Shown here: piece after piece, positions 29,303-54,253 of the stretch
How the letters are laid out: every line of letters starts with the position of its first letter
Numbering within the stretch: the first letter of the stretch is position 1
Source of the DNA: Myxococcaceae bacterium
GTDB lineage: Bacteria > Myxococcota > Myxococcia > Myxococcales > Myxococcaceae
Assembly: GCA_016793095.1 (NCBI GenBank)
Contig: JAEUJQ010000068.1
Span: 1 to 64,000 of the forward strand
Direction: 5' to 3'
Length of the DNA stretch: 64,000 nt
Notes under the pieces: model-generated
Seen by the model: only the letters and a program-made list of their open reading frames with translations
The model's database searches: none
What the model was told of the DNA's origin: nothing
Translations under genes and position numbers: made by a program

Positions 29303-29426
29303 CGAGCCTGTGCAGGCACGGCCGGTTGGTGAACGTACCCGACGAGATGGACATCGCGCAGCTGGTACCGCCCCGTCGTCGCCGGCCGCGGCGGCGACGC
29401 GCGTGAGCTCGGCCCTTCGGCGTGGC

Positions 29427-44556: not shown

Positions 44557-44635
<79 letters not shown>

Positions 44636-44638
44636 TTG

Positions 44639-44682
44639 AAGGGCCTGATCTCCGAGGGGAAACCCAAGGCGGTCAGGCCCTT
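44639..44682 (+). terminator. Terminator downstream of tRNA-Pro, carried by the element's left end
   Basis: Arms AAGGGCCTGA (44639-44648) and TCAGGCCCTT (44673-44682) are followed by CGTCTTTCC. A similar hairpin with different bases follows the right repeat, so the element appears to supply a replacement tRNA terminator at its left end. Confidence 0.6.
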
Positions 44683-44745
44683 CGTCTTTCCGGCCTCCCC
44701 CTGCCCGCACAATGGGCGCACAAAGCGGTTGGGCTCGCGCTGAAC

Positions 44746-44913
44746 TTGCTGACTGTGAAGGCGGTCGCCGAGCGCCTCTCGGTGTGCACAGCGACCGTCT
44801 ACAAACTCTGCGACCAGGGGCGGTTGGCCTACGTCCGCGTGTCGAACGCGATCCGCATCGAGGCTGACGAACTGGAGCGCTTCATCGCGGGTCAGGGGAG
44901 GGCGGTTCCGTGA
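44746..44913 (+). CDS. Excisionase-family helix-turn-helix protein, at the left end of the element
   Basis: A 55-residue MerR/Xis-type winged helix: [20 protein letters not shown] then [26 protein letters not shown] at 44746 or GTG at 44755 could start it; neither has a clear ribosome site. The reading frame is open leftwards through the terminator and tRNA 3' half with no stop, which matters because in the circular element it would be continuous with the integrase gene. It is a paralogue of the protein at 52552. Its stop overlaps the rep start (GTGA). Confidence 0.6.
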
Positions 44914-45704
44914 TCGCCGGCTCCCATAGTTCCGTGAGGAGAGAAGAAGGATTCAAGCAGATCACTGGGGAACCAGACGGGTGGGGGTCGGAGATGAAGC
45001 TCTCTCTTCAGCTCCAGGATCCCCAGGACGCACGCGCGTGGGAGTTCAGCTACCTGAACCAGTTCGACCGGGCGCACTGGGTGACCCGCTGCTCCAACAG
45101 TATGGATACCCTCGGCGGGCGCACCTGCAAGATGCGGCAGTGCCCCGCCTGCTCGTTGCGGGCCTCGCGGGACCTTGCACACCGCATTCAGACGGTTGCA
45201 CGTCGCATGGAGCACAGGCTGTCGCTGATCATCTCCCTCCGCTCGACTGGTCTTTGGGACCTGCGGGAGACGCTTCGTTCCCTGAGGTCGTTCGTCACCG
45301 TCGTGCACCGCTGGAAGGGGCTGGCCGGGCTCACCGCAGTTGGCGCCATCGAACCGAAGCTCACAGCCGCCAAGCGGGCGTGGGTGCCACACGCCCACGT
45401 GGTCGTTGACGCCAAGGCGTTGGTGGTTGGCCCTCTCGCCGACCGCTATCACGACCTCACGAACGGTCTCGGTACGTTGATGCTCGCGGCTCCGCGACCA
45501 GACCTGTTCGAGTCCATCCCGATGATCGCCACCTACTTCTCGAAGCCCGAAAGTTGGTGCCCGTTTCCCGGCTCAATGCACCCGCAAATGTTCGGGATCT
45601 TCGCCGACGCGGTGAAGGGCGTTCAGCGGCTTGTCGAGTGGAACGGGGGCCGCCGCGGGCGCCGCAAGCGCCGGCACTCGGAGGTTGAGGCCCATGCAGC
45701 TTGA
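44910..45704 (+). CDS. Candidate HUH rolling-circle replication initiator
   Basis: A 264-residue protein. PHAHVVV gives an HUH motif (His161, His163), and ATYFSKP supplies a candidate catalytic Tyr209 in a YxxK context, as in Rep_1-type plasmid initiators. Upstream, CKMRQCPAC with further residues RASRDLAHRI (Cys73, Cys78, Cys81) resembles the zinc-binding patch preceding the HUH motif in such proteins. The C-terminus is very basic (GGRRGRRKRRH). It would nick one strand to begin replication of the excised circle. The GTG at 44910 has GGGGAGG upstream and overlaps the HTH stop. Family is inferred from motifs; overall similarity was not tested. Confidence 0.62.
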   Translation: MIAGSHSSVRREEGFKQITGEPDGWGSEMKLSLQLQDPQDARAWEFSYLNQFDRAHWVTRCSNSMDTLGGRTCKMRQCPACSLRASRDLAHRIQTVARRMEHRLSLIISLRSTGLWDLRETLRSLRSFVTVVHRWKGLAGLTAVGAIEPKLTAAKRAWVPHAHVVVDAKALVVGPLADRYHDLTNGLGTLMLAAPRPDLFESIPMIATYFSKPESWCPFPGSMHPQMFGIFADAVKGVQRLVEWNGGRRGRRKRRHSEVEAHAA

Positions 45705-46086
45705 CCTACTGACGACGCCGCGGGCCCGCCGCCGGCGTGAGGGCGTCGAGCAGCTCCACGTGCTCCGAGTCCCGCTGTACGACGCCGACGAGCCCGGAAC
45801 GCAGTTCAAGGTGGTTCACGAGGCCGTGGCGCTGGCGAAGGAGATGGCTCGCACGTCGCACCTCGGGCACGCCCTCAGCCTCGTCTGCACCCACTTCATC
45901 GCGATGATGGGGGGGCGGTCGGAGGCGGTGCGTCTGCTCGTGCCGTTCGAGAAGCTGTTGGGCGTGAGGTTGATCATCGTCGACCGGCAGTCGCCGACCA
46001 TCCTCTACGGTATGAACACAATCCAGGGACTCGCGGACGCTGGCGACGAACCGGCCGGAACCCGTGGCGACGATGCGCTACCTTGA
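45694..46086 (+). CDS. Hypothetical element protein, 130 aa
   Basis: It begins inside the end of rep (11-bp overlap) with GGAGG upstream of the ATG, so it is translationally coupled to rep. The sequence is Arg-rich at the start (TPRARRRREGVEQL) and then helical with a small hydrophobic core (ALSLVCTHFIAMM). No family recognised. Position suggests an accessory role in replication or its control, but this is only positional. Confidence 0.55.
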   Translation: MQLDLLTTPRARRRREGVEQLHVLRVPLYDADEPGTQFKVVHEAVALAKEMARTSHLGHALSLVCTHFIAMMGGRSEAVRLLVPFEKLLGVRLIIVDRQSPTILYGMNTIQGLADAGDEPAGTRGDDALP

Positions 46087-46109
46087 CTTCGCTGGAGGTC
46101 CGGGCGAAC

Positions 46110-46128
46110 TTAATCCGATGCGGACTAA
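46110..46128. promoter_or_regulatory. Operator copy 1 (TTAATCC-N5-GGACTAA)
   Basis: Arms TTAATCC and GGACTAA with a 5-bp spacer, one mismatch from the perfect palindrome at 46457. It covers the likely start codon (46118) of the following regulator gene, consistent with autoregulation. Confidence 0.55.
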
Positions 46129-46453
46129 ACGCGAAGTGTTGCGCCCAACGGCTCGTCGGAAGGCATCGGTCAAGCAGGAAGCCAAGAAGCTGGGGCGCCC
46201 TGTTACGCCCGGCTCGAAGGCCGTCGAGACCGAACTCTCCCATTGGCTTGCCCGGTCCGGCGTGAACCGAGGCGAGTTCGCGACGAAGCTCGGCATGGAG
46301 CGAACGAGCTTCGACCGCTACGCGCGCGGCGAGCGGGTTCCTGACGTTCGGCTGGCGTTCAGGATCGAAGACCTGACAGATGGCGCCGTGCCCGCTCGCA
46401 GTTGGGTGGCCGTCCTTGAGTTGCGTGAGACGCAATCGAGTGCTCGGGCTTGA
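46118..46453 (+). CDS. HTH regulator of the element, XRE-like
   Basis: A 111-residue basic protein. Residues about 35-75 (LSHWLARSGVNRGEFATKLGMERTSFDRYARGER) read as a lambda-repressor-type helix-turn-helix. The N-terminus is Lys/Arg-rich. ATG at 46118 was chosen; GTG at 46064 is an in-frame alternative. An operator-like palindrome covers this start, and a second copy lies immediately after the gene in the promoter of the serine recombinase, so the protein is the natural candidate for the repressor that binds both. Confidence 0.6.
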   Translation: MRTKREVLRPTARRKASVKQEAKKLGRPVTPGSKAVETELSHWLARSGVNRGEFATKLGMERTSFDRYARGERVPDVRLAFRIEDLTDGAVPARSWVAVLELRETQSSARA

Positions 46454-46478
46454 GGTTTAATCCGGTATGGATTAATAT
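46450..46478 (+). promoter_or_regulatory. Promoter of the serine recombinase with embedded operator copy 2
   Basis: TTGAGG (46450-46455), 17-bp spacer, TAATAT (46473-46478). The perfect inverted repeat TTAATCC-GGTAT-GGATTAA (46457-46475) fills the spacer and overlaps the -10, the typical position for repression by occlusion. Confidence 0.65.
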
Positions 46479-46506
46479 TGCTGCATCCAACGACAGAGGC
46501 GGCACC

Positions 46507-47157
46507 ATGATGGCGACCGGGTATCTCAGGGTTTCGAGCAGGGCCCAGGATCACGCGACCCAGCGCTCCGCGATTGAACGTGCCGCCGCCGCCCGTGGCG
46601 ACACGATCACCAACTGGTACGCGGAGAAGAAGTCAGGCAAGACCCTCGCCCGCCCCGAACTCGATCGCCTTCGCACCGACGTTCGCGGCGGTCGGCTCCA
46701 GGGCAGGCTCTATGTGTTCAAGCTGGATCGTCTGACCCGCTCGGGCATCCGCGACACGTTCGAGGTGATTGAGGAACTGAAGGATCACGGCGTCGAGCTG
46801 GTCTCGGCCGCTGATGGCTTTGACCTCAGTGGGCCAGTTGCCGAAGTGATTCTTGCCGTCATGGCGTGGGCCGCGAAGATGGAACTGGTGACCCGAGGGG
46901 AACGCGTTGCCGCTGCACGCGATCGAATTGAGGCAGCGGGCGGCCAGTGGGGAAGACCCAGCCGCCTGACCCGTGATGACCGCTCGAAGATCGTGGCGCT
47001 GCACACCGAGGGGCGCAGCATCCGAGCGATCGCGGTGGCACTGAAGATTCCACGGGCCACCGTCGGCAGGGCGCTGGCGGCGTCTCGAAAAGGTGGGTCG
47101 CCAACTGGCCCGCTGGCTCCTCTTGACGAACGCTGTCAGCAGGGGGCGGCCGGGTAG
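46507..47157 (+). CDS. Serine recombinase (resolvase/invertase family)
   Basis: A 216-residue resolvase-type enzyme. ATGYLRVSSRAQDHATQ places the nucleophilic Ser10 in the RVS motif; KLDRLTRSGIRDTFEVIEEL and GERVAAARDRIEAAGG follow as in the family, ending with an HTH_7-like DNA-binding region (GRSIRAIAVALKIPRATVGRAL). It could resolve multimers of the circle or invert DNA. ATG at 46507 (or 46510) has GAGG upstream. Its promoter carries the element's operator. Confidence 0.88.
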   Translation: MMATGYLRVSSRAQDHATQRSAIERAAAARGDTITNWYAEKKSGKTLARPELDRLRTDVRGGRLQGRLYVFKLDRLTRSGIRDTFEVIEELKDHGVELVSAADGFDLSGPVAEVILAVMAWAAKMELVTRGERVAAARDRIEAAGGQWGRPSRLTRDDRSKIVALHTEGRSIRAIAVALKIPRATVGRALAASRKGGSPTGPLAPLDERCQQGAAG

Positions 47158-47175
47158 TCTACTTCTGGGACAGCC

Positions 47176-47460
47176 TCACCCGGTCGGTTTGGGATTGCGC
47201 GGCGGCCTGCCAGCGCGTGGGGGCCGACGAATCGATGGCAGGAACAGCGACTCCAGCGGGACCTCAAGCGCCTCGGCGACAGCGACCAGCGAACGCACGC
47301 TGGGGTTCACCGAGCCACGTTCGAGCTTCCGCAGGTAGGTCACGTGCATGTCAGCCCGCTCGGCGAGCTGCTCCTGCGCGAGGCCGCGCTCGTCACGGAG
47401 CTTCTGCACGTTGCCGGCGATGTACCGGATGAGGAGGTTCGCGGCCCTCGCACCCACCAT
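47176..47460 (-). CDS. XRE-family transcriptional regulator
   Basis: A 94-residue repressor-like protein: NVQKLRDERGLAQEQLAERADMHVTYLRKLERGSVNPSVRSLVAVAEALEV is a canonical HTH_3 domain, followed by a short Pro/Arg-rich tail. It is the only minus-strand gene in the left half of the element and diverges from the Sel1-like gene at 47550. It may be the lysogeny-type regulator of the element or of cargo; not determined. Confidence 0.8.
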   Translation of the reverse strand: MVGARAANLLIRYIAGNVQKLRDERGLAQEQLAERADMHVTYLRKLERGSVNPSVRSLVAVAEALEVPLESLFLPSIRRPPRAGRPPRNPKPTG

Positions 47461-47549
47461 GGGGTAACCGAGTAGTTCTCGCTGGCTCCAGCAAACAGAG
47501 ACGATAGGCTCGGTTGAGTTCCTCGCATTCCTGCATGGAGGTCAACTTG

Positions 47550-48254
47550 GTGACCAGTAGCCCAATGTCGTTGCTGATCGTCGCGGTCGCGCTCGTCTGT
47601 TCGCTGGCCAATGCTGAGGGCGCAGGCGACGCAGCGCAGAAGCGGGCCTTCCAGACGAACAACGCAGCCTGCAAGATCAAGGCGGACAAGAACGCGTGCG
47701 CGAAGGTTGCCCGTGCATGGCTGCTTGGTGAGGGGGTCGAGGTGAATTTTGCCTTCGCGAGCGAGCTTGCGACCGACGCCTGCGCGAACAACGTTGGGGA
47801 AGGCTGCTACGTCCTTGGTCGCGTCGCCCTCTCGAAGGAGAAGTGGGCGGAGGTAGCAAAGCTGTTCGAGAAGTCCTGTGATCTCAGTTTCGCTGAGGGC
47901 TGCGTCGACCTCGGACTCTGGGTCTACCGGAACGGCAACGGTGGCGCTCCGAAGGACCCGAATCGCGAGGTCGCCTTGTACAAGCGAGGGTGTGAGCTGA
48001 AGCTGGCTGGAGCGTGCTTGGAGGCGGGCGACATGTACAACAGCGTGCGCGGCTCCGGTTCGCTGCCGGCGGACGACACCGCAGCGGCGGGGTACTACCG
48101 CCAGGGTTGCGAACTGAATGAGGCCCAGTGCTGCTTCCAGCTGGCTCGGGCTCACAAGTTCGGCGAGGGCGTCGAGAAGGACTCGAAGCTGAAGGCGCAG
48201 TTCGCTGCCAAGGCATGCAAGTTGGGCGAGAAGAACGCGTGCGGCAAGTGGTGA
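47550..48254 (+). CDS. Exported Sel1-like repeat protein (cargo)
   Basis: A 234-residue exported protein. GTG at 47550 has GGAGG at 8 nt and starts a clean signal peptide (SPMSLLIVAVALVCSLANA). The mature part consists of Sel1-type units with regularly spaced Cys (ACAKVARAWLLGEGV, GCYVLGRVAL, GCVDLGLWVYRNGNGG, ACLEAGDMYNS, CCFQLARAHKFGEGVEKD), i.e. helical repeats probably braced by disulphides. Secreted Sel1 proteins are common in myxobacteria. No link to phage biology is evident. Confidence 0.75.
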   Translation: MTSSPMSLLIVAVALVCSLANAEGAGDAAQKRAFQTNNAACKIKADKNACAKVARAWLLGEGVEVNFAFASELATDACANNVGEGCYVLGRVALSKEKWAEVAKLFEKSCDLSFAEGCVDLGLWVYRNGNGGAPKDPNREVALYKRGCELKLAGACLEAGDMYNSVRGSGSLPADDTAAAGYYRQGCELNEAQCCFQLARAHKFGEGVEKDSKLKAQFAAKACKLGEKNACGKW

Positions 48255-48310
48255 CCGGCTGACCGCGCGGGCGTTGGCCCGCCAGCGGTCGACGGCGATA
48301 GAATGCTCGG

Positions 48311-48760
48311 GTGGCGAACCGCCTTTCATCAGCGCAGGTCGAGCAGGCATGGACGGCGTTCCAGGAGCGCCAGAGTGCTGACTACGTGTCGAGGAAGTGC
48401 GGGCTTCACTGGCGCACCGTCGAGCGCTACCGGCGGCTGGAGCGATGGGACGAGCGGCTCGCCGAGATCAGCGCCAAGGCGCAGGCGGCGGCCGACTACG
48501 ACCTGGCGGCGGCCCGTGGGCACTCCCTCCGGCTCCTGCGCGCCTACAAGAGCAAGGTTGAGCAGGCCCTGTTGAAGAAGGCGGTGTCGCCCGACGAGGT
48601 GAACGCGGCGGAGCTGGATCGGATCGTTCGGACGGAGATGCTGCTGCTCGGCGGGCCCGACAGCAGGACTGAGGTCGTGGCCAACGTGTCGGGGCGGTTC
48701 TCGTCGATGACCGACGAGGAGCTTGAGAGGTTCGCACGCGATGGAACCATCCCTGGCTGA
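48311..48760 (+). CDS. Probable terminase small subunit
   Basis: A 149-residue protein with an N-terminal helix-turn-helix (SADYVSRKCGLHWRTVERYRRLERW) and a long helical middle, the usual layout of TerS proteins that recognise the packaging site. Its stop lies within the first codons of the TerL-like gene (20-bp overlap), the standard terS-terL arrangement. Identification rests on context and layout more than on sequence motif. The GTG at 48311 is used. Confidence 0.58.
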   Translation: MANRLSSAQVEQAWTAFQERQSADYVSRKCGLHWRTVERYRRLERWDERLAEISAKAQAAADYDLAAARGHSLRLLRAYKSKVEQALLKKAVSPDEVNAAELDRIVRTEMLLLGGPDSRTEVVANVSGRFSSMTDEELERFARDGTIPG

Positions 48761-50258
48761 GCGCGCAGCCGCGCGACACGAGCTGATCCTGAGGCGCGCA
48801 CGGTCGGACTTCCTCTCGTTCGCCGAGTACGTGTTCGCGTTCAAGCCTGCCCCTCATCATCGGGAATGGGCGGCGGTCGTCGAACGGCCGCGTGTGGCGG
48901 TCGTGTGCGGCCCGGAGATGGGCAAGACCTCGCTCCTCGCGATAGCCCTTCCGCTGTGGCGCCTCGGGAGAAATCCGAACCTTCGGATCGCGATCATCAG
49001 CGAGACCGCGACCCAGGGCGCTCGGCCGCTCGCCGCCATCCGCCAGGCGATCGCGCAGAACCAGCGGCTCCAAGAGGTCTTCCCTCATCTTCGCCCCGCT
49101 GGTGGCGCTCGCGAGAAGTGGAGCGACACGGAGATCCTGGTCGAGCGCACCGACACCCTGAAGGAGCCGAGCATCATTGCGCTCGGCGTTGGAGGTCCGC
49201 TCCTTGGCGTTCGCCTGGAGTTGGCCATCCTCGACGACTGCGTGAGCTTTGAGTCCGCGTGGACCGCGGCGCAGCGAGCAAAGACGCTCGCCTGGTTTCG
49301 GTCGACCTTGATCGGCCGCATCGTCTCGACGGGCCAAGTCGTTGCTCTCGGCAATCCGTGGCACCGAGAGGACCTGCTCGGGCACCTCCAGCAGTCGGGC
49401 GAGTATCACGTCATTCGCACAGCGGCCGAGCTGCCCGACGGGTCGCCCACCTGGCCCGAGGTGTGGCCGCGCGAGCGCCTCGAACAGCGGCGGCGCGAAC
49501 TTGGCCTGGTCGAGTACCGGCGTCAGATGCTGCTGGAGCCCCCGGCCGACGAGGGCTCGCGCTTTTCTGCCGAATGGTTCGAGGCGGCGTTCCGAGTCGC
49601 CTCGGCAGAAGGGCTCGCGCTCGTCGACAGCTTCACCGGCCCCGGAGTGGCGTTCAGCGGCGTCGATCTTGGCGTCGGCCAGGAGGCGCGGCACGACGAA
49701 TCCGTGATCTTCACATTGGCGAAGCTCCCCGGTGGCCGACGACGGGTTCTCAACATCGAGCGTGGTCGGTGGCAGGCACCGGAGCTGATCTCGCGGTTGA
49801 TGTCGACGCAGCAGCGCTTTCGATCTCGCCTGCGCGTTGAGTCGAACGGCGCACAGGCGTTCATCACCCAGCTGCTCCGGTCGAAGGGTGTGAGCGTCGA
49901 GGGCCACGTGACCACCGCGACCGCAAAGAGCGACCCTCACTTCGGGATCGAGTCGCTGGCCGCCGAGCTTGAGCAGGGTCGTTGGTTGATTCCCGATGCC
50001 CCTGCGACACGTCGTTGGGCTCAAGAGTGCTTGAGCTACTCGCCCAGCGAGCACACGCCCGACGGCCTCATGGCTTCGTGGATGGCGCGGGAGGCGGCAC
50101 GTGAAGGCGAGTCGTTCGTGCCGCTGCTTCCGCTGCCGAGCGACGGGCGGTCGACGCTCGACCGGTACCGGCGGGAGGGCATTTTCGTGGCAAGGCCGGG
50201 GGCGTTTCCCGATAGCTCCGACGAGGAGCTGATGCGTGCTCAGCCCCGCCGGTTGTAG
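48741..50258 (+). CDS. Phage terminase large subunit
   Basis: A 505-residue DNA-packaging motor and nuclease. ATPase part: deviant Walker A CGPEMGKT (Gly57-Thr63) and Walker B LAILDD (Asp165, Asp166), with SETATQG-like and TGQVVALGNPWH coupling motifs. Nuclease part: FSGVDLGVG (Asp309) with DESVI, then RVESNGAQAF and HTPDGLMASWMAREA as the later acidic motifs of the RNase H-like fold. Both halves look intact, so this is not a remnant. GAGAGG precedes the ATG. No portal or capsid gene follows; the next gene is convergent. Confidence 0.85.
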   Translation: MEPSLAERAAARHELILRRARSDFLSFAEYVFAFKPAPHHREWAAVVERPRVAVVCGPEMGKTSLLAIALPLWRLGRNPNLRIAIISETATQGARPLAAIRQAIAQNQRLQEVFPHLRPAGGAREKWSDTEILVERTDTLKEPSIIALGVGGPLLGVRLELAILDDCVSFESAWTAAQRAKTLAWFRSTLIGRIVSTGQVVALGNPWHREDLLGHLQQSGEYHVIRTAAELPDGSPTWPEVWPRERLEQRRRELGLVEYRRQMLLEPPADEGSRFSAEWFEAAFRVASAEGLALVDSFTGPGVAFSGVDLGVGQEARHDESVIFTLAKLPGGRRRVLNIERGRWQAPELISRLMSTQQRFRSRLRVESNGAQAFITQLLRSKGVSVEGHVTTATAKSDPHFGIESLAAELEQGRWLIPDAPATRRWAQECLSYSPSEHTPDGLMASWMAREAAREGESFVPLLPLPSDGRSTLDRYRREGIFVARPGAFPDSSDEELMRAQPRRL

Positions 50259-50260
50259 GT

Positions 50261-50812
50261 CTACCGCTTCGGAGGTGCCGCCTTTGCCGCAAGCTGAGAG
50301 AGGAGGTTCGTTCCCACGGCCCCGCTGGCCGGGGCAGCGCGGTACTCCTCTTCGGAGAACTCTGGGGGCTTGGTGCCGATCTGCCAGAGGGCGAAGATCC
50401 CGGAGAGGTACGCCGTTGCACGTGCATCCTCACCCTGGATGATGCCGCCGACCGATTGCGGGAAGAACGTGACATCAGCGGGGAAGGAATCGCTCGGGAC
50501 GCCCTCGGTGATTGCTTGCACCTGCTGCACGTACTTCGGACTCGCCTGGTGCGAAGTCAGCACGGTGACGGCCCCCTTACGCTCTCCGAGCGCGAGAACC
50601 GGCGTGAGAAGCCCCTGCGCCAAGAGTTGTTCGGCGATCCAGATGATTCGGGTGTCGTGGTCCTCGTCCCAGACGATCACGAAGTCGTGGAACGCGAGCT
50701 TGGGTTGCCAGACGACGGCTCTGAGCACCGAGTAGTGACTTCCGCGTCCAATGGCGCCGATCGGCGCGGCTTCGTCATGGATCGTGGAAAAGAAATGGGA
50801 GTAGCGACGCAT
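50261..50812 (-). CDS. Hypothetical cargo protein, 183 aa
   Basis: A soluble protein with an acidic strand-turn segment (FHDFVIVWDEDHDTRIIWIAEQLL) and the stretch VLALGERKGAVTVLTSHQ. No signal peptide or recognised family. A good ribosome site (AGGAG, 6 nt) precedes the ATG at 50812. It is on the strand opposite to its neighbours, ends 2 bp after terL, and has its own upstream region, as expected of an independently expressed accessory gene such as a defence or immunity factor; this function is speculation. Confidence 0.6.
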   Translation of the reverse strand: MRRYSHFFSTIHDEAAPIGAIGRGSHYSVLRAVVWQPKLAFHDFVIVWDEDHDTRIIWIAEQLLAQGLLTPVLALGERKGAVTVLTSHQASPKYVQQVQAITEGVPSDSFPADVTFFPQSVGGIIQGEDARATAYLSGIFALWQIGTKPPEFSEEEYRAAPASGAVGTNLLSQLAAKAAPPKR

Positions 50813-50854
50813 GAGGACTCCTTCCGAGAGTCAGTGGGTTTCGACCACGCCAAG

Positions 50855-50869
50855 CGGTCTTTCGGACCG
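50855..50869. promoter_or_regulatory. CGGTC-N5-GACCG inverted repeat, related to the 52255 site
   Basis: It contains TCTTTCGGACCG, a 12-mer repeated at 52250-52261. It lies between the divergent genes at 50812 and 51035. Possibly a second binding site for an element regulator. Confidence 0.35.
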
Positions 50870-51034
50870 ACTGGGTACGACCGCCACCACTCTCGCAGAA
50901 GCGCGCAGCACGTTCAACCGCGCGCCAGCGGGTGAACTGATGGCTCGACTCGCCAAGGTGAAGGTCGTCGCAGTGAGCACGCACTCGGACGGCGCTGCGC
51001 TACGGTGAGGCACGTTGCTACTCAGGGAGGGCCC

Positions 51035-51451
51035 ATGGACGAGGTTGAACGAATCCAACTGGCGATGGAGTTCTTCGAGGCTGAAGACCTTCGGAAAGCG
51101 CAGCACGCGTTCTGCGAGGCCGGCTTGGCGCTCGCGAACCAGCAGAACCCGATTCCACAGCACGTGCAGGATCGAATCGCGGCAACGTTCAAGGAGGCCA
51201 CCAGCGGCCGGCTTCAAGACCTTGTGGTCGGGTGCGCGCAGGAGATCGCGAAGCACTTCTCAGACGAGGAGCTGCGCGCGGTGTCGGACTTCTACAAGAC
51301 GCCCGCCGGGAAGACGCTCAAGCTCAAGGCGCCTGCGTACGCGAAGGCGATCGCCGAGTTTCAGACGAAGTGGAGTCAGACCTTGCTGGCTGAGGTCACG
51401 AGACAGTTGACGACTGGGGCGCTCAAGCAAGGCGAGCCCCCGCGCAATTGA
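51035..51451 (+). CDS. DUF2059-like protein without signal peptide
   Basis: A 138-residue helical protein. ELRAVSDFYKTPAGKTLKLKAP is the hallmark of DUF2059, a domain usually found in exported proteins of unknown function; here no signal peptide is seen with the ATG at 51035, which has GGGAGG upstream. An earlier start does not add one. The absence of export may mean a different role in the element, or a start I have missed. Confidence 0.65.
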   Translation: MDEVERIQLAMEFFEAEDLRKAQHAFCEAGLALANQQNPIPQHVQDRIAATFKEATSGRLQDLVVGCAQEIAKHFSDEELRAVSDFYKTPAGKTLKLKAPAYAKAIAEFQTKWSQTLLAEVTRQLTTGALKQGEPPRN

Positions 51452-51463
51452 GGCAGGCGGACA

Positions 51464-51844
51464 ATGCACACGATCGAGTCTGCGTTTGAATCAGAGGCCA
51501 TCGCCGAGGCCCACCAGGTGCTCGGGCTCTACCGGTTCCACCTTAGGGACTTGTCGACGCCGATCTTCATTCGGACCCTCAGGCCGATCGGCGGGAACGG
51601 CGTTGCCTTCGAGCAGAGTCACTTCATCAAGACCCCGACCCAATCTGGGCCGTACCGACCTGGCGCCCAAGGTGGAGACGACGAGCCCAGGGCCCTGCGT
51701 CGAGCCGTCAAGTCGATTGCCGACTACTTCGAGGAAGCGATTGCCGCTGGCCACCAGCCGAGGGAAGACTGGCTGGTCGTGAACGAGTCGTTCAGTTGGA
51801 ACGGTTCGGAGGCTGTTCCCCATCACTCCCAGGAGAAGCCATGA
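51464..51844 (+). CDS. Hypothetical element protein, 126 aa
   Basis: A soluble protein of mixed composition (FRFHL-like core YRFHLRDLSTPIFIRTLRP, then ALRRAVKSIADYFEEAI). No recognised family. It starts 12 bp after the DUF2059-like gene and its stop overlaps the next ATG (ATGA), so the three genes form one operon. Confidence 0.55.
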   Translation: MHTIESAFESEAIAEAHQVLGLYRFHLRDLSTPIFIRTLRPIGGNGVAFEQSHFIKTPTQSGPYRPGAQGGDDEPRALRRAVKSIADYFEEAIAAGHQPREDWLVVNESFSWNGSEAVPHHSQEKP

Positions 51845-52170
51845 CCCTTCGCTATCGCGAAGCCGCACCCCCCGCCCCGCACCTACTGGTCGGCTCGGCA
51901 ACGATCTCGATCGACGCGAGGCTGCCGTCACCAATGACCGAGTTCCTCCTCAGGATGGGCGACAGCAGCACGGCAGTCACTGGGGCATGGGCTGAGGTCG
52001 TTGCTCGACTCCATGAACAGGGGGAAGCGGTTCGCCGACGACTGGCGGAGGTTCCTGCCCGCGCGACACCGAGGTTCTCTACACGGTCAAGTTGTCGCCG
52101 AAGATGCCCGAGGCGACCTTGCAGTTCTTCGTGTAGGCGGTCGGCCACCTGGGCGACGCGCCGAACCTGA
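51841..52170 (+). pseudogene. Probably frameshifted hypothetical gene
   Basis: The first 75 codons look like protein (TGAWAEVVARLHEQGEAVRRRLAEVPAR). After about 52064 the frame turns into an Arg/Ser-rich sequence typical of a wrong frame. A shift to the frame starting GAC at 52065 restores natural-looking sequence (DTEVLYTVKLSPKMPEATLQFFV) up to a TAG at 52134-52136, after which AVGHLGDAPNLTHGLMRDG continues. So one frameshift, and perhaps one nonsense change, appear to break the gene. Sequencing error is the alternative. Confidence 0.45.
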
Positions 52171-52208
52171 CGCACGGGCTGATGCGTGATGGTTCGCGAC
52201 GATTCCGC

Positions 52209-52237
52209 TTGACAGGGTGAGTCATCCATACACTTTA
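52209..52237 (+). promoter_or_regulatory. Possible promoter of the HTH-xis-int operon
   Basis: TTGACA (52209-52214) with a 17-bp spacer to ACTTTA (52232-52237). The -35 is perfect, the -10 is poor. It is the best candidate in front of the three coupled genes ending with the integrase. Confidence 0.35.
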
Positions 52238-52254
52238 GCGACGTGCGGTTCTTT

Positions 52255-52276
52255 CGGACCGTCGGACTTCGGTCCG
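52255..52276. promoter_or_regulatory. Operator-like palindrome CGGACCG-N8-CGGTCCG
   Basis: Perfect 7-bp arms, 18 bp downstream of the candidate -10 and 18 bp before the start of the HTH gene at 52295. The left arm lies in a 12-mer shared with 50858-50869. A likely binding site for a regulator of the integrase operon. Confidence 0.45.
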
Positions 52277-52294
52277 CTCAATGAGGAACGCACG

Positions 52295-52555
52295 ATGCCC
52301 CGCACTCAGCAAGACAGGCTCCAGGTGCCTGCCGCCACCCGATTCTCGGACGCTGCCATCACGTATTGGGTGGCTGTCTCCGACGTTGCGCGCGCACTTG
52401 GTTGTGGTCGAACCACTGCCTACGCACATCTTCGGCGCGCAGCCGGCCGACGCCCCGGTGACCGCGGCCTCCTTCGTGTCCCCGCGCCGATCTGGGAACG
52501 ATACGCAGCCGAGCACCTCGGGCCTCGTCCTGCCAGCAGCGCGGAGGGCGCATGA
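52295..52555 (+). CDS. Small HTH DNA-binding protein
   Basis: An 86-residue protein; VAVSDVARALGCGRTTAYAHLRRAAGRR is a helix-turn-helix, followed by a wing-like GLLRVPAPIWERYAAEHL. GAGGA precedes the ATG at 8 nt. It is translationally coupled to the excisionase-like gene (ATGA overlap at 52552) and so to the integrase. It may bind the palindrome just upstream of its start. Confidence 0.65.
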   Translation: MPRTQQDRLQVPAATRFSDAAITYWVAVSDVARALGCGRTTAYAHLRRAAGRRPGDRGLLRVPAPIWERYAAEHLGPRPASSAEGA

Positions 52556-52800
52556 AGCCAGAACTTCCGAAGAACGACGAGCCGCGCTGGACCGTGAAGA
52601 TCGTCGCGGCCTTCCTGAACTGCTCCCCGTCGAAGGTCTACAAGGCGTCCGAAGCAGGGACGTTGCCCTGTGTTCGCCTCGACGGCATGCTTCGATTCAA
52701 CCCCGATGAGATTCGCGCATACGCACGTGGCGAGCTGAAGCCGCGTCCGCGCGTGCGTTTAGTGCACCTCGACGTTGAGAAGCCGGTGGACCGTGGCTGA
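52552..52800 (+). CDS. Excisionase-like HTH protein
   Basis: An 82-residue protein of the excisionase DNA-binding family: WTVKIVAAFLNCSPSKVYKA and GTLPCVRLDGMLRFNPDEIRAYARG. It is a paralogue of the left-end HTH protein (shared pattern TVK-VA-L-VYK-G-L-VR-R-DE). Its place directly before int, with overlapping stop and start, suits a recombination directionality factor, though such proteins can also be transcriptional regulators. Confidence 0.72.
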   Translation: MKPELPKNDEPRWTVKIVAAFLNCSPSKVYKASEAGTLPCVRLDGMLRFNPDEIRAYARGELKPRPRVRLVHLDVEKPVDRG

Positions 52801-54253
52801 GCCCTTCAAGCGAGACGGAGTGTGGATGCTCGCGTTCAAGGACGGCGCCGGGCAGTGGCGCCAGCAGCGCACGAAGGCTGCGACGAAGGCCGAAGCTCGG
52901 GTGATGCTGCGGGACATCGAGCGGCGGATGGAGCGCATTCGGAATGGTCTGGAGCAACTCCCGGACCCCGAGTTGATGACCTTCGGCCAGCTTCTCGATT
53001 GGTGGAAGAGCGAGTACGGCGAACGGCTGAAGTCGCCAACCGTCCTGCTGATGGCAGAGAAGCACCTGCGCGGTGACCTGGGGGGCCTCACACTCCAGCA
53101 AGTGACTCCGAGCGCGATTGAGGGCCTGCTGAAGGCTCGTGAATCGACGCTGAAGCCCTCGACCCTCAACCACCTGCGAGCGCTGCTACACCGAATCTTC
53201 CGCACCGCGCTGCTCCGTGGTCGATGGCATGGAGCGAACCCCGCGTCGACCGTCGTCCGACGAAAGGTACCCAAGCGCCTGCCGACGTTCCTGAAGTACG
53301 ACGAGGTGATCGCCGTTCTGCCGGCGCTCCCCGAGAAGTGGGTCGCGTTCTTCGCGACGGCTGTCTATCTGGGCCTGCGCCGCGGCGAGCTGATTGCGCT
53401 CCGCAAGGGCGACGTGGATCTCCCAAGCCGAACGATCGCGGTTCTCCGAAGCGGAGAAGGCGACACGACGAAGGGTGGCCACGCGGACCTGCTTCCGATC
53501 CCCGACGCGCTCATGCCGTACTTGTCGAGTGCGTTCCGCTCGTCGCCGAGTGAGTTCGTCTTCCCACGGGAAGATGGATCGATGCTTCCCCTCGACGTGG
53601 CAGTAGACAAGATCTTGCGGCGCACGCTGGGAAGGGTGGGCATCGTCGACGGCTATGAACGTCGTTGTCGTCGCCGCGGTTGCGGGTTCACCGAGCCACG
53701 TGCAGACACCGCCGAGGGCCGGTGCCCTCGCTGCGACATGAAGCTGTGGTTGAAGTCGACCCCCCGACATGTTCGGTTCCATGACCTCCGACACACGACC
53801 GCGACGCTCCTTCTGAAGCAGGGCGTGCCGCTGCCGTTCGTGCAACGCATCCTTCGGCACCGAGACCCGGCGCTCACGACCGAGATCTACGGGCACCTTG
53901 AACTGACCGACCTACGCGCCGCACTCAACGTGCTCGATTTCAGGACCGAGGAGGAGCGCATCAATGCCGCGGAGGCGATCGGTGACGAACACCGTCGCGT
54001 GGCGGGGGACGATCGCACTTCGGTTGTCGCTGCGGCCGACGAGGAGCGCGCACAACCGGCGCACAAGAATTTCTGCCAGCCGATGGGGCACGGGCGAGCG
54101 CATCCAACCGCGAGGATGACTCAGACTGGCGGATCTCCAAGGGTTGCGAATCGGAGCTACGCCCTGCCAACGCGTGGGGAACATGGTTCGACCGTTGGGG
54201 TGCAAGTGGTCGCTGGTTCAAATCCAGTCGCCCCGACCATTGGAAGGCCCTGA
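52793..54253 (+). CDS. int: Tyrosine integrase with inserted zinc ribbon; reading frame crosses the attachment site
   Basis: A 486-residue site-specific recombinase. The N-terminal arm-binding and SAM-like core-binding domains (TFGQLLDWWKSEYGERLKSP) precede the catalytic domain with Arg196 (GLRRGEL), His330 and Arg333 (HDLRHTTAT), RHRDP and the nucleophile Tyr366 (TTEIYGHL). Between the first Arg and the HxxR box lies CRRRGC and CPRC (Cys292, 297, 311, 314), a four-Cys zinc ribbon. The last 23 codons run through the right tRNA repeat ([14 protein letters not shown]) and stop in chromosomal DNA at 54251, so the C-terminus depends on whether the element is integrated. GTG at 52793. Confidence 0.92.
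   Translation: MAEPFKRDGVWMLAFKDGAGQWRQQRTKAATKAEARVMLRDIERRMERIRNGLEQLPDPELMTFGQLLDWWKSEYGERLKSPTVLLMAEKHLRGDLGGLTLQQVTPSAIEGLLKARESTLKPSTLNHLRALLHRIFRTALLRGRWHGANPASTVVRRKVPKRLPTFLKYDEVIAVLPALPEKWVAFFATAVYLGLRRGELIALRKGDVDLPSRTIAVLRSGEGDTTKGGHADLLPIPDALMPYLSSAFRSSPSEFVFPREDGSMLPLDVAVDKILRRTLGRVGIVDGYERRCRRRGCGFTEPRADTAEGRCPRCDMKLWLKSTPRHVRFHDLRHTTATLLLKQGVPLPFVQRILRHRDPALTTEIYGHLELTDLRAALNVLDFRTEEERINAAEAIGDEHRRVAGDDRTSVVAAADEERAQPAHKNFCQPMGHGRAHPTARMTQTGGSPRVANRSYALPTRGEHGSTVGVQVVAGSNPVAPTIGRP
54195..54241 (+). repeat. Right attachment site (tRNA-Pro 3' half copy)
   Basis: Matches 44591-44637 at 45 of 47 positions, starting at the anticodon loop. The two differences are the two partners of one T-stem base pair. 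There is no 5' half, so this is not a second tRNA gene. It lies inside the end of the integrase reading frame. Confidence 0.9.

What the first reader, a model, noticed from the sequence alone, without database searches (positions are those of the whole stretch)
46110..46478. Paired operators of one repressor at its own start and in the serine recombinase promoter
TTAATCC-N5-GGACTAA (46110) covers the likely start codon of the HTH gene; the perfect version TTAATCC-N5-GGATTAA (46457) sits between -35 and -10 of the recombinase promoter. AT-rich palindromes stand out in this GC-rich DNA. This looks like an autoregulated repressor that also silences recombination.
Basis: partly seen in the sequence, partly recalled or inferred. 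Interest (0 to 1): 0.5.

Follow-up and report, generated by a model that had tools for sequence, protein, structure and literature searches.

The report
Twin operators of a Cro-like regulator
A small integrated, phage-like DNA element in a myxobacterium carries the same AT-rich palindrome twice, once over the start of a small phage-type regulator gene and once in front of a DNA recombinase gene, which most likely lets a regulator switch both genes; this is an ordinary kind of genetic switch.

Summary
TTAATCC-N5-GGACTAA (46110-46128) and TTAATCC-N5-GGATTAA (46457-46475) are there, and are the only matches within 2 mismatches in the 8.81 Mb genome. At up to one mismatch, 141 other genomes of the order hold two sites in all. 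No AT-rich palindrome pair like this arose in 300 shuffles. The gene between them encodes a 111-aa Cro-like XRE protein; the second site precedes a resolvase/invertase-type serine recombinase. Both lie in a 9.6-kb element at tRNA-Pro(ggg) with its own tyrosine integrase. Best reading: paired operators of that regulator. But binding is unshown, conservation could not be tested (no close relative of the regulator found), the promoter hexamers are weak, the start codon is uncertain, and the element has at least three other HTH proteins. 'Silences recombination' should mean the serine recombinase, not integration. The sites are probably not the recombinase's own: 0 of 9 recombinase relatives carry them, while 5 of 9 share a different site at the gene's 3' end (window 47154-47173; one of the five helped define it). 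Ordinary regulation; the 3' site is the better lead.

The parts
46110..46128 (.). Palindrome 1, TTAATCC-N5-GGACTAA; ATG 46118 of the regulator gene is its exact centre (TTAATCCG-ATG-CGGACTAA)
46457..46475 (.). Palindrome 2, TTAATCC-N5-GGATTAA, perfect; candidate operator in the recombinase promoter
46450..46478 (+). Candidate promoter: TTGAGG (46450-46455), 17-base spacer, TAATAT (46473-46478); weak, each hexamer 4 of 6
   Evidence: read; not reported by the scan at 9 of 12
46118..46453 (+). 111-aa Cro-like XRE/HTH regulator (P0001); start codon uncertain
   Evidence: phrog_2328 transcriptional repressor 1.2e-5; HTH_31 1.6e-3, below cut-off; Cro-like protein of Paracoccus phage Pthi1, 34% over residues 38-111, 2e-7
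46507..47157 (+). 216-aa resolvase/invertase-type serine recombinase (P0002)
   Evidence: PF00239 4.4e-30 and HTH_7 3.2e-6; phrog_125 DNA invertase 9.3e-40
47154..47173 (+). GTAGTCTACTTCTGGGACAG at the recombinase stop codon, shared with 5 of 9 recombinase relatives: candidate recombinase site (a different sequence from the palindromes)
44591..44645 (+). Left att-like repeat, beginning inside tRNA-Pro(ggg) 44559-44635
54195..54249 (+). Right att-like repeat, 93% identical to the left one
52775..54253 (+). Tyrosine integrase, the likely integration enzyme; overlaps the right repeat
   Evidence: PF00589 3.1e-18; phrog_1 3e-60
44587..44913 (+). HTH_17 (excisionase-like) protein at the left end; rival candidate binder
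   Evidence: PF12728 1.5e-12; phrog_66 5.7e-7
44910..45704 (+). Replication-initiator-like protein (weak Rep_1 match; PHAHVVVD resembles an HUH motif)
   Evidence: PF01446 2.3e-4, below cut-off; motif recalled
45694..46086 (+). 130-aa protein of unknown function between the Rep-like gene and the regulator
   Evidence: no Pfam, PHROG or NCBIfam match
47176..47460 (-). Second XRE/HTH_3 regulator, rival candidate binder
   Evidence: PF01381 2.3e-15
48738..50258 (+). Terminase large subunit (start codon not settled; read from 48738)
   Evidence: phrog_38 6.2e-81
52552..52800 (+). AlpA/excisionase-like HTH_17 protein next to the integrase; rival candidate binder
   Evidence: PF12728 2.4e-8

Best explanation
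The two palindromes are operators for one dimeric regulator, most likely the Cro-like XRE protein encoded between them. Bound at 46457-46475, in the spacer of the recombinase's presumed promoter, it would block RNA polymerase and keep the serine recombinase off. Bound at 46110-46128, over the start of its own gene, it would limit its own expression. Shown: the two sites, their rarity, the gene order and the protein families. Inferred: who binds, that binding represses, that the promoter is real, and that the effect is autoregulation. The dyad centres are 347 bp apart, about 33 turns at 10.5 bp, so looping between the sites is possible but untested.
For: Two near-identical 19-bp dyads 347 bp apart, the only ones in the genome within 2 mismatches and almost absent from 141 other genomes of the order at 1 mismatch. 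0 of 300 shuffles gave an AT-rich pair. The gene between them encodes a small HTH protein; of its 13 phage matches 7 are annotated Cro-like or repressor, and its best PHROG is a transcriptional repressor. Site 2 lies in a 17-base spacer between promoter-like hexamers. The pair lies inside an element with phage-type genes.
Against: No relative of the regulator in genome or viral contigs (these scans reach close relatives only) or plasmids, and one weak match in 59 other genomes, so conservation is untested. Promoter hexamers are weak. The regulator's start codon and ribosome site are unclear. In five phage relatives of the regulator, palindromes at the start codon were not above chance. No consistent palindrome excess in the 90 bases before 9 recombinase relatives. 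At least three other HTH proteins of the element could be the binder. The single-sequence structure model was poor (mean pLDDT 53.4).
Confidence: 0.5

Rival explanations
1. The sites are operators, but of another HTH protein of the element (HTH_3 regulator 47176-47460, or the HTH_17 proteins 44587-44913 and 52552-52800), which controls the Cro-like gene and the recombinase from outside.
For: These proteins are present and their domain matches are far stronger than that of P0001.
Against: None of these genes has a copy of the motif at its own start: the window has only the two sites, so none would be autoregulated through it; the sites flank the Cro-like gene.
Confidence: 0.25
2. The palindromes are binding or crossover sites of the serine recombinase itself, so that the 366-bp stretch with the regulator gene could be deleted, or the recombinase represses its own gene as resolvases do.
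For: Two copies flank a gene directly upstream of a recombinase gene; resolvases are known to bind sites near their own promoter (recalled).
Against: 0 of 9 recombinase relatives (45-70% identical) carry even a half-site in the locus held, and the best upstream match to the full motif was at chance in each, whereas 5 of 9 share a different site at the gene's 3' end (0 of 200 shuffles each). The dyad is 19 bp with an odd centre; crossover sites of this enzyme class are about 26-28 bp with a 2-bp centre (recalled).
Confidence: 0.08
3. The inverted repeats act in RNA: site 1 would form a hairpin with the start codon in the loop and control translation.
For: ATG 46118 is the centre of the dyad. 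In the 29-base piece at site 1 the centroid fold pairs the inner four bases around AUG (-2.8 kcal/mol), and the 29-base piece at site 2 folds as its palindrome (-6.0 kcal/mol).
Against: The minimum-energy folds at site 1 (29 and 59 bases; z -0.72 and -1.06) do not use the palindrome, and in 81 bases of context the minimum-energy fold of site 2 does not either, though the centroid does (z 0.51). Site 2 would lie upstream of the transcript of its own presumed promoter.
Confidence: 0.05
4. The resemblance is chance or leftover duplication without function.
Against: 0 of 300 shuffles with an AT-rich pair; no other site within 2 mismatches in 8.81 Mb.
Confidence: 0.1

Closest known systems
Lambda-type CI/Cro operators (recalled), and the small Cro-like proteins of cyanophages and Paracoccus phage Pthi1
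   Same: Small XRE protein; for lambda, dyad operators that control its own gene and a neighbouring gene
   Different: Only two sites, 347 bp apart on either side of the regulator gene; no divergent CI gene next to it; the controlled gene is a serine recombinase; the motif is its own
LfsT, an XRE regulator of Pseudomonas aeruginosa acting on phage PP9W2 (PMC9769523; abstract and passages seen)
   Same: XRE protein binding partial palindromes in promoters, including a phage repressor gene
   Different: Host-encoded, motif NAACN(5,8)GTTN, many targets; no recombinase target in the passages seen
Resolvase autoregulation at res sites (Tn3/gamma-delta TnpR; recalled)
   Same: Recombinase gene with palindromic sites at its promoter
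   Different: Here the sites flank another HTH gene and are absent from 9 recombinase relatives, 5 of which share another site at the 3' end
Phage satellites (PICI, P4 type; recalled)
   Same: Integrase at a tRNA gene, AlpA-like gene, replication-like gene, terminase gene, small size
   Different: Among 16 proteins of the element scanned no capsid or tail protein matched; the only structural hit beside the terminase is a weak portal-profile match (1.5e-3) of the 149-aa protein at 48311; helper dependence not testable

Membership tests
Operator pair of a phage-type Cro/CI (XRE) repressor | Dyad-symmetric site present in more than one copy near the regulator gene | tested here: met
Operator pair of a phage-type Cro/CI (XRE) repressor | Regulator has an XRE-type HTH domain | tested here: met
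   phrog_2328 1.2e-5 and Cro-like phage proteins, best 2e-7; the Pfam HTH_31 match is below cut-off
Operator pair of a phage-type Cro/CI (XRE) repressor | Site overlaps a promoter of the controlled gene | tested here: inconclusive
   Hexamers 4 of 6 each with a 17-base spacer; the scan reports none; no promoter evident at site 1
Operator pair of a phage-type Cro/CI (XRE) repressor | Sites conserved with the regulator in related elements | tested here: inconclusive
   No related element with the regulator found
Operator pair of a phage-type Cro/CI (XRE) repressor | The protein binds the site and represses | not testable with these tools
   needs gel shift or reporter
Recombination or res site of the serine recombinase | Site accompanies the recombinase in relatives | tested here: not met
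   0 of 9 relatives
Recombination or res site of the serine recombinase | About 26-28 bp with half-sites around a 2-bp centre | tested here: not met
   19-bp dyad with an odd centre; yardstick recalled
Integrated satellite-like element at a tRNA gene | Direct repeats of the tRNA 3' end at both ends plus a tyrosine integrase | tested here: met
Integrated satellite-like element at a tRNA gene | Depends on a helper phage for packaging | not testable with these tools
   terminase large subunit present, helper unknown

The most novel reading that the evidence does not exclude
A single Cro-like protein holds a two-operator loop (347 bp, about 33 turns) over its own gene and a serine recombinase of a so far undescribed small-recombinase family that carries its own conserved crossover site at its 3' end (GTAG-N-CTACTTC-N-GGGACAG); the pair forms a switch deciding when the replicated element's multimers are resolved or its module exchanged.
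Probability: 0.15. Interest if true: 0.5.

Novelty: new member of a known kind. Interest (0 to 1): 0.27.

Why it matters
If true, it adds one clean, easily tested regulator-operator pair from a myxobacterial phage-like element, with a motif found nowhere else in its genome within two mismatches. The more useful by-product is a candidate DNA site for a family of small serine recombinases, which could make the recombination reaction directly testable.

Tried and rejected
Relatives of the regulator: a weak match in 1 of 59 other genomes (same order, not same genus; E 5.5e-4, 30%, a stop inside); none in genome contigs or viral contigs, scans that reach close relatives only; none in plasmids; 13 phage records at 26-42% identity. 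Relatives of the Rep-like protein: none in 146 other genomes at E <= 1e-8, viral contigs, phages or plasmids. The 130-aa protein: 1 weak match in 141 other genomes. Terminase at E <= 1e-40: none in 141 other genomes. So no sister element was found and conservation of the palindrome could not be tested.

Start-codon palindromes in five phage relatives of the regulator: no excess over shuffles; a sixth, from the Synechococcus phage (fetched), was left out because no gene is annotated there on that strand. Palindrome excess before nine recombinase relatives: none consistent (lowest 21 of 200 shuffles, L015; window 15 of 200). RNA hairpin: not favoured. Structure of the regulator alone: too poor to use, so no fold search was made. 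Solved structures: one chance-level match, 8tac, E 0.19.

Recombinase: 14 plasmid and 2 phage records at 32-38% identity were not examined for the sites; none in viral contigs. The 3' site: no exact match in viral contigs. In six relatives' genomes a slightly looser pattern at 3 mismatches gave about as many hits as its backward control (for example 26 against 25 in G117), so second copies cannot be told from chance there.

L020-L022 (30-35% identical) were left out as too distant.

Paper searches: of which I saw listings; no listed title concerns this element or motif, which is no proof of absence from print. Of PMC9769523 I saw the abstract and passages only.

One more HTH protein appeared, so I lowered the best explanation from 0.55 to 0.5 and raised its first rival from 0.2 to 0.25.

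Full report
What is there. The two palindromes exist as written: TTAATCCGATGCGGACTAA at 46110-46128 and TTAATCCGGTATGGATTAA at 46457-46475. In the window they are the only matches within three mismatches (0.07 expected), and every TTAATCC in 64 kb lies in them. In the whole genome (8,810,604 bases, 93 contigs) they are the only matches within two mismatches. Of 142 genomes of the order searched at one mismatch, own included, two others had a site, one each. Because the pair was picked by eye, I also counted all pairs of gapped palindromes (arms of 7, at most one mismatch each, same spacer) within 500 bp sharing their arms: 2 in the window against 0.91 on average in shuffles, so such pairs are common in general; but pairs at least 60% AT occurred once in the window and in none of 300 shuffles (window G+C 69%). 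The other pair in the window, at 29378 and 29793, is GC-rich.

Surroundings. The sites lie in an element bounded by 55-bp direct repeats, 93% identical, at 44591-44645 and 54195-54249, the left one beginning inside tRNA-Pro(ggg) 44559-44635. A tyrosine integrase (52775-54253) overlaps the right repeat. Other members: an HTH_17 protein at the left end, a Rep-like protein (weak Rep_1 match), a 130-aa protein without matches, the 111-aa HTH protein, the serine recombinase, an HTH_3 regulator on the other strand, a Sel1-repeat protein, a 149-aa protein before the terminase (a small subunit by position only; its one structural match is a weak portal profile), a terminase large subunit, a DUF2059 protein and a second HTH_17 protein by the integrase. 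Sixteen proteins were scanned in Pfam and PHROGs; no capsid or tail protein matched. This resembles a phage satellite or a remnant. The genome is a myxobacterium by kinship: G117 of the same family has the contig length of the Pyxidicoccus caerfyrddinensis record of L013.

The regulator. P0001 matches phage repressor profiles (phrog_2328, 1.2e-5) and, over its C-terminal two thirds, Cro-like proteins of Paracoccus, cyanobacterial and other phages (best 34%, 2e-7; 7 of the 13 records are annotated Cro-like or repressor). The translations of the Paracoccus, Nostoc and Microcystis proteins share a GAVPxxxW segment with it after the HTH. The annotated Paracoccus and Nostoc proteins begin near residue 39 of P0001, so P0001 has an extra basic N-terminal stretch if ATG 46118 is the start. 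That ATG is the exact centre of palindrome 1. GTG 46064 and ATG 46073 are in frame too, and the nearest good ribosome-site sequence ends 18 bases before 46118, so the start is unsettled. The stop codon of the regulator (46451-46453) lies inside the presumed -35 of the recombinase.

The promoter. TTGAGG, 17 bases, TAATAT fits the spacing of a sigma-70 promoter but only 4 of 6 in each hexamer; the scan, which needs 9 of 12, reports none in the element. Palindrome 2 fills the spacer and the first bases of the -10. At palindrome 1 I see no convincing promoter.

Could the recombinase own the sites? I gathered nine distinct relatives of the recombinase, 45-70% identical. None has TTAATCC or GGATTAA anywhere in the locus held, and the best upstream match to the full motif was at chance level in all nine (31 to 100 of 100 shuffles did as well). 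Instead a different sequence (GTAGNCTACTTCNGGGACAG, window 47154-47173, overlapping the recombinase stop codon) recurs at or just after the 3' end of the gene in 5 of 9: L013, L009, L014, L016 and L018 with 0, 2, 3, 4 and 5 mismatches, 0 of 200 shuffles each; in the other four it is not significant (45, 50, 112 and 198 of 200). I first saw it by comparing the window with L013, whose differences set the N positions, and had seen the other loci before the test; so L013 is not independent, and 4 of the 8 others carry it. In L014 and L016 it lies after the stop codon and in L013, L009 and L018, as in the window, it includes the stop codon, so coding conservation alone does not explain it. The two most distant relatives (L010, L019) have GGAAGTGTACTTGTTGACC before the gene instead. 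The own genome has one copy within three mismatches, and the backward control had six. In six relatives' genomes, hits at three mismatches were about as many as in the control. A single copy per element next to the gene would suit a site for resolving multimers or an attachment site; this is inference.

Other readings. RNA folding does not favour the palindrome at site 1: the minimum-energy folds do not use it, though the centroid of the 29-base piece pairs its inner four bases. A host regulator with its own regulon is unlikely since the genome holds no other site within two mismatches. Another HTH protein of the element remains possible.

Verdict. It is an ordinary kind of regulation. The recombinase's 3' site is the more promising lead.

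Noticed in passing
47154-47173; L013, L014, L016, L018, L009: GTAGNCTACTTCNGGGACAG at the 3' end of the serine recombinase gene recurs in 5 of 9 recombinase relatives (0 of 200 shuffles each; L013 helped define it), in two of them beyond the stop codon: candidate site of the recombinase.
   Followed up: partly
L010 and L019, about 50-75 bases before the recombinase match: Both carry AGGAAGTGTACTTGTTGACC upstream, possibly the same half-site in another position.
   Followed up: partly
44591-54249: A 9.6-kb element at tRNA-Pro(ggg) with terminase large subunit, Rep-like gene, two HTH_17 genes and integrase; no sister element found in 141 other genomes by its terminase (E <= 1e-40) or in 146 others by its Rep-like protein (E <= 1e-8).
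   Followed up: partly
L014:383-1864: A terminase large subunit gene also lies upstream of the recombinase relative in L014, as one lies downstream in the window.
   Followed up: partly
47514-48254: A Sel1-repeat protein (PF08238, 1.2e-8; phrog_8741, 1e-14, unknown function) between the HTH_3 regulator and the terminase genes.
   Followed up: no
29378 and 29793: A GC-rich pair of similar palindromes (GTCGCCG-N7-CGGCGAC and one with a mismatch), of the kind expected by chance.
   Followed up: no
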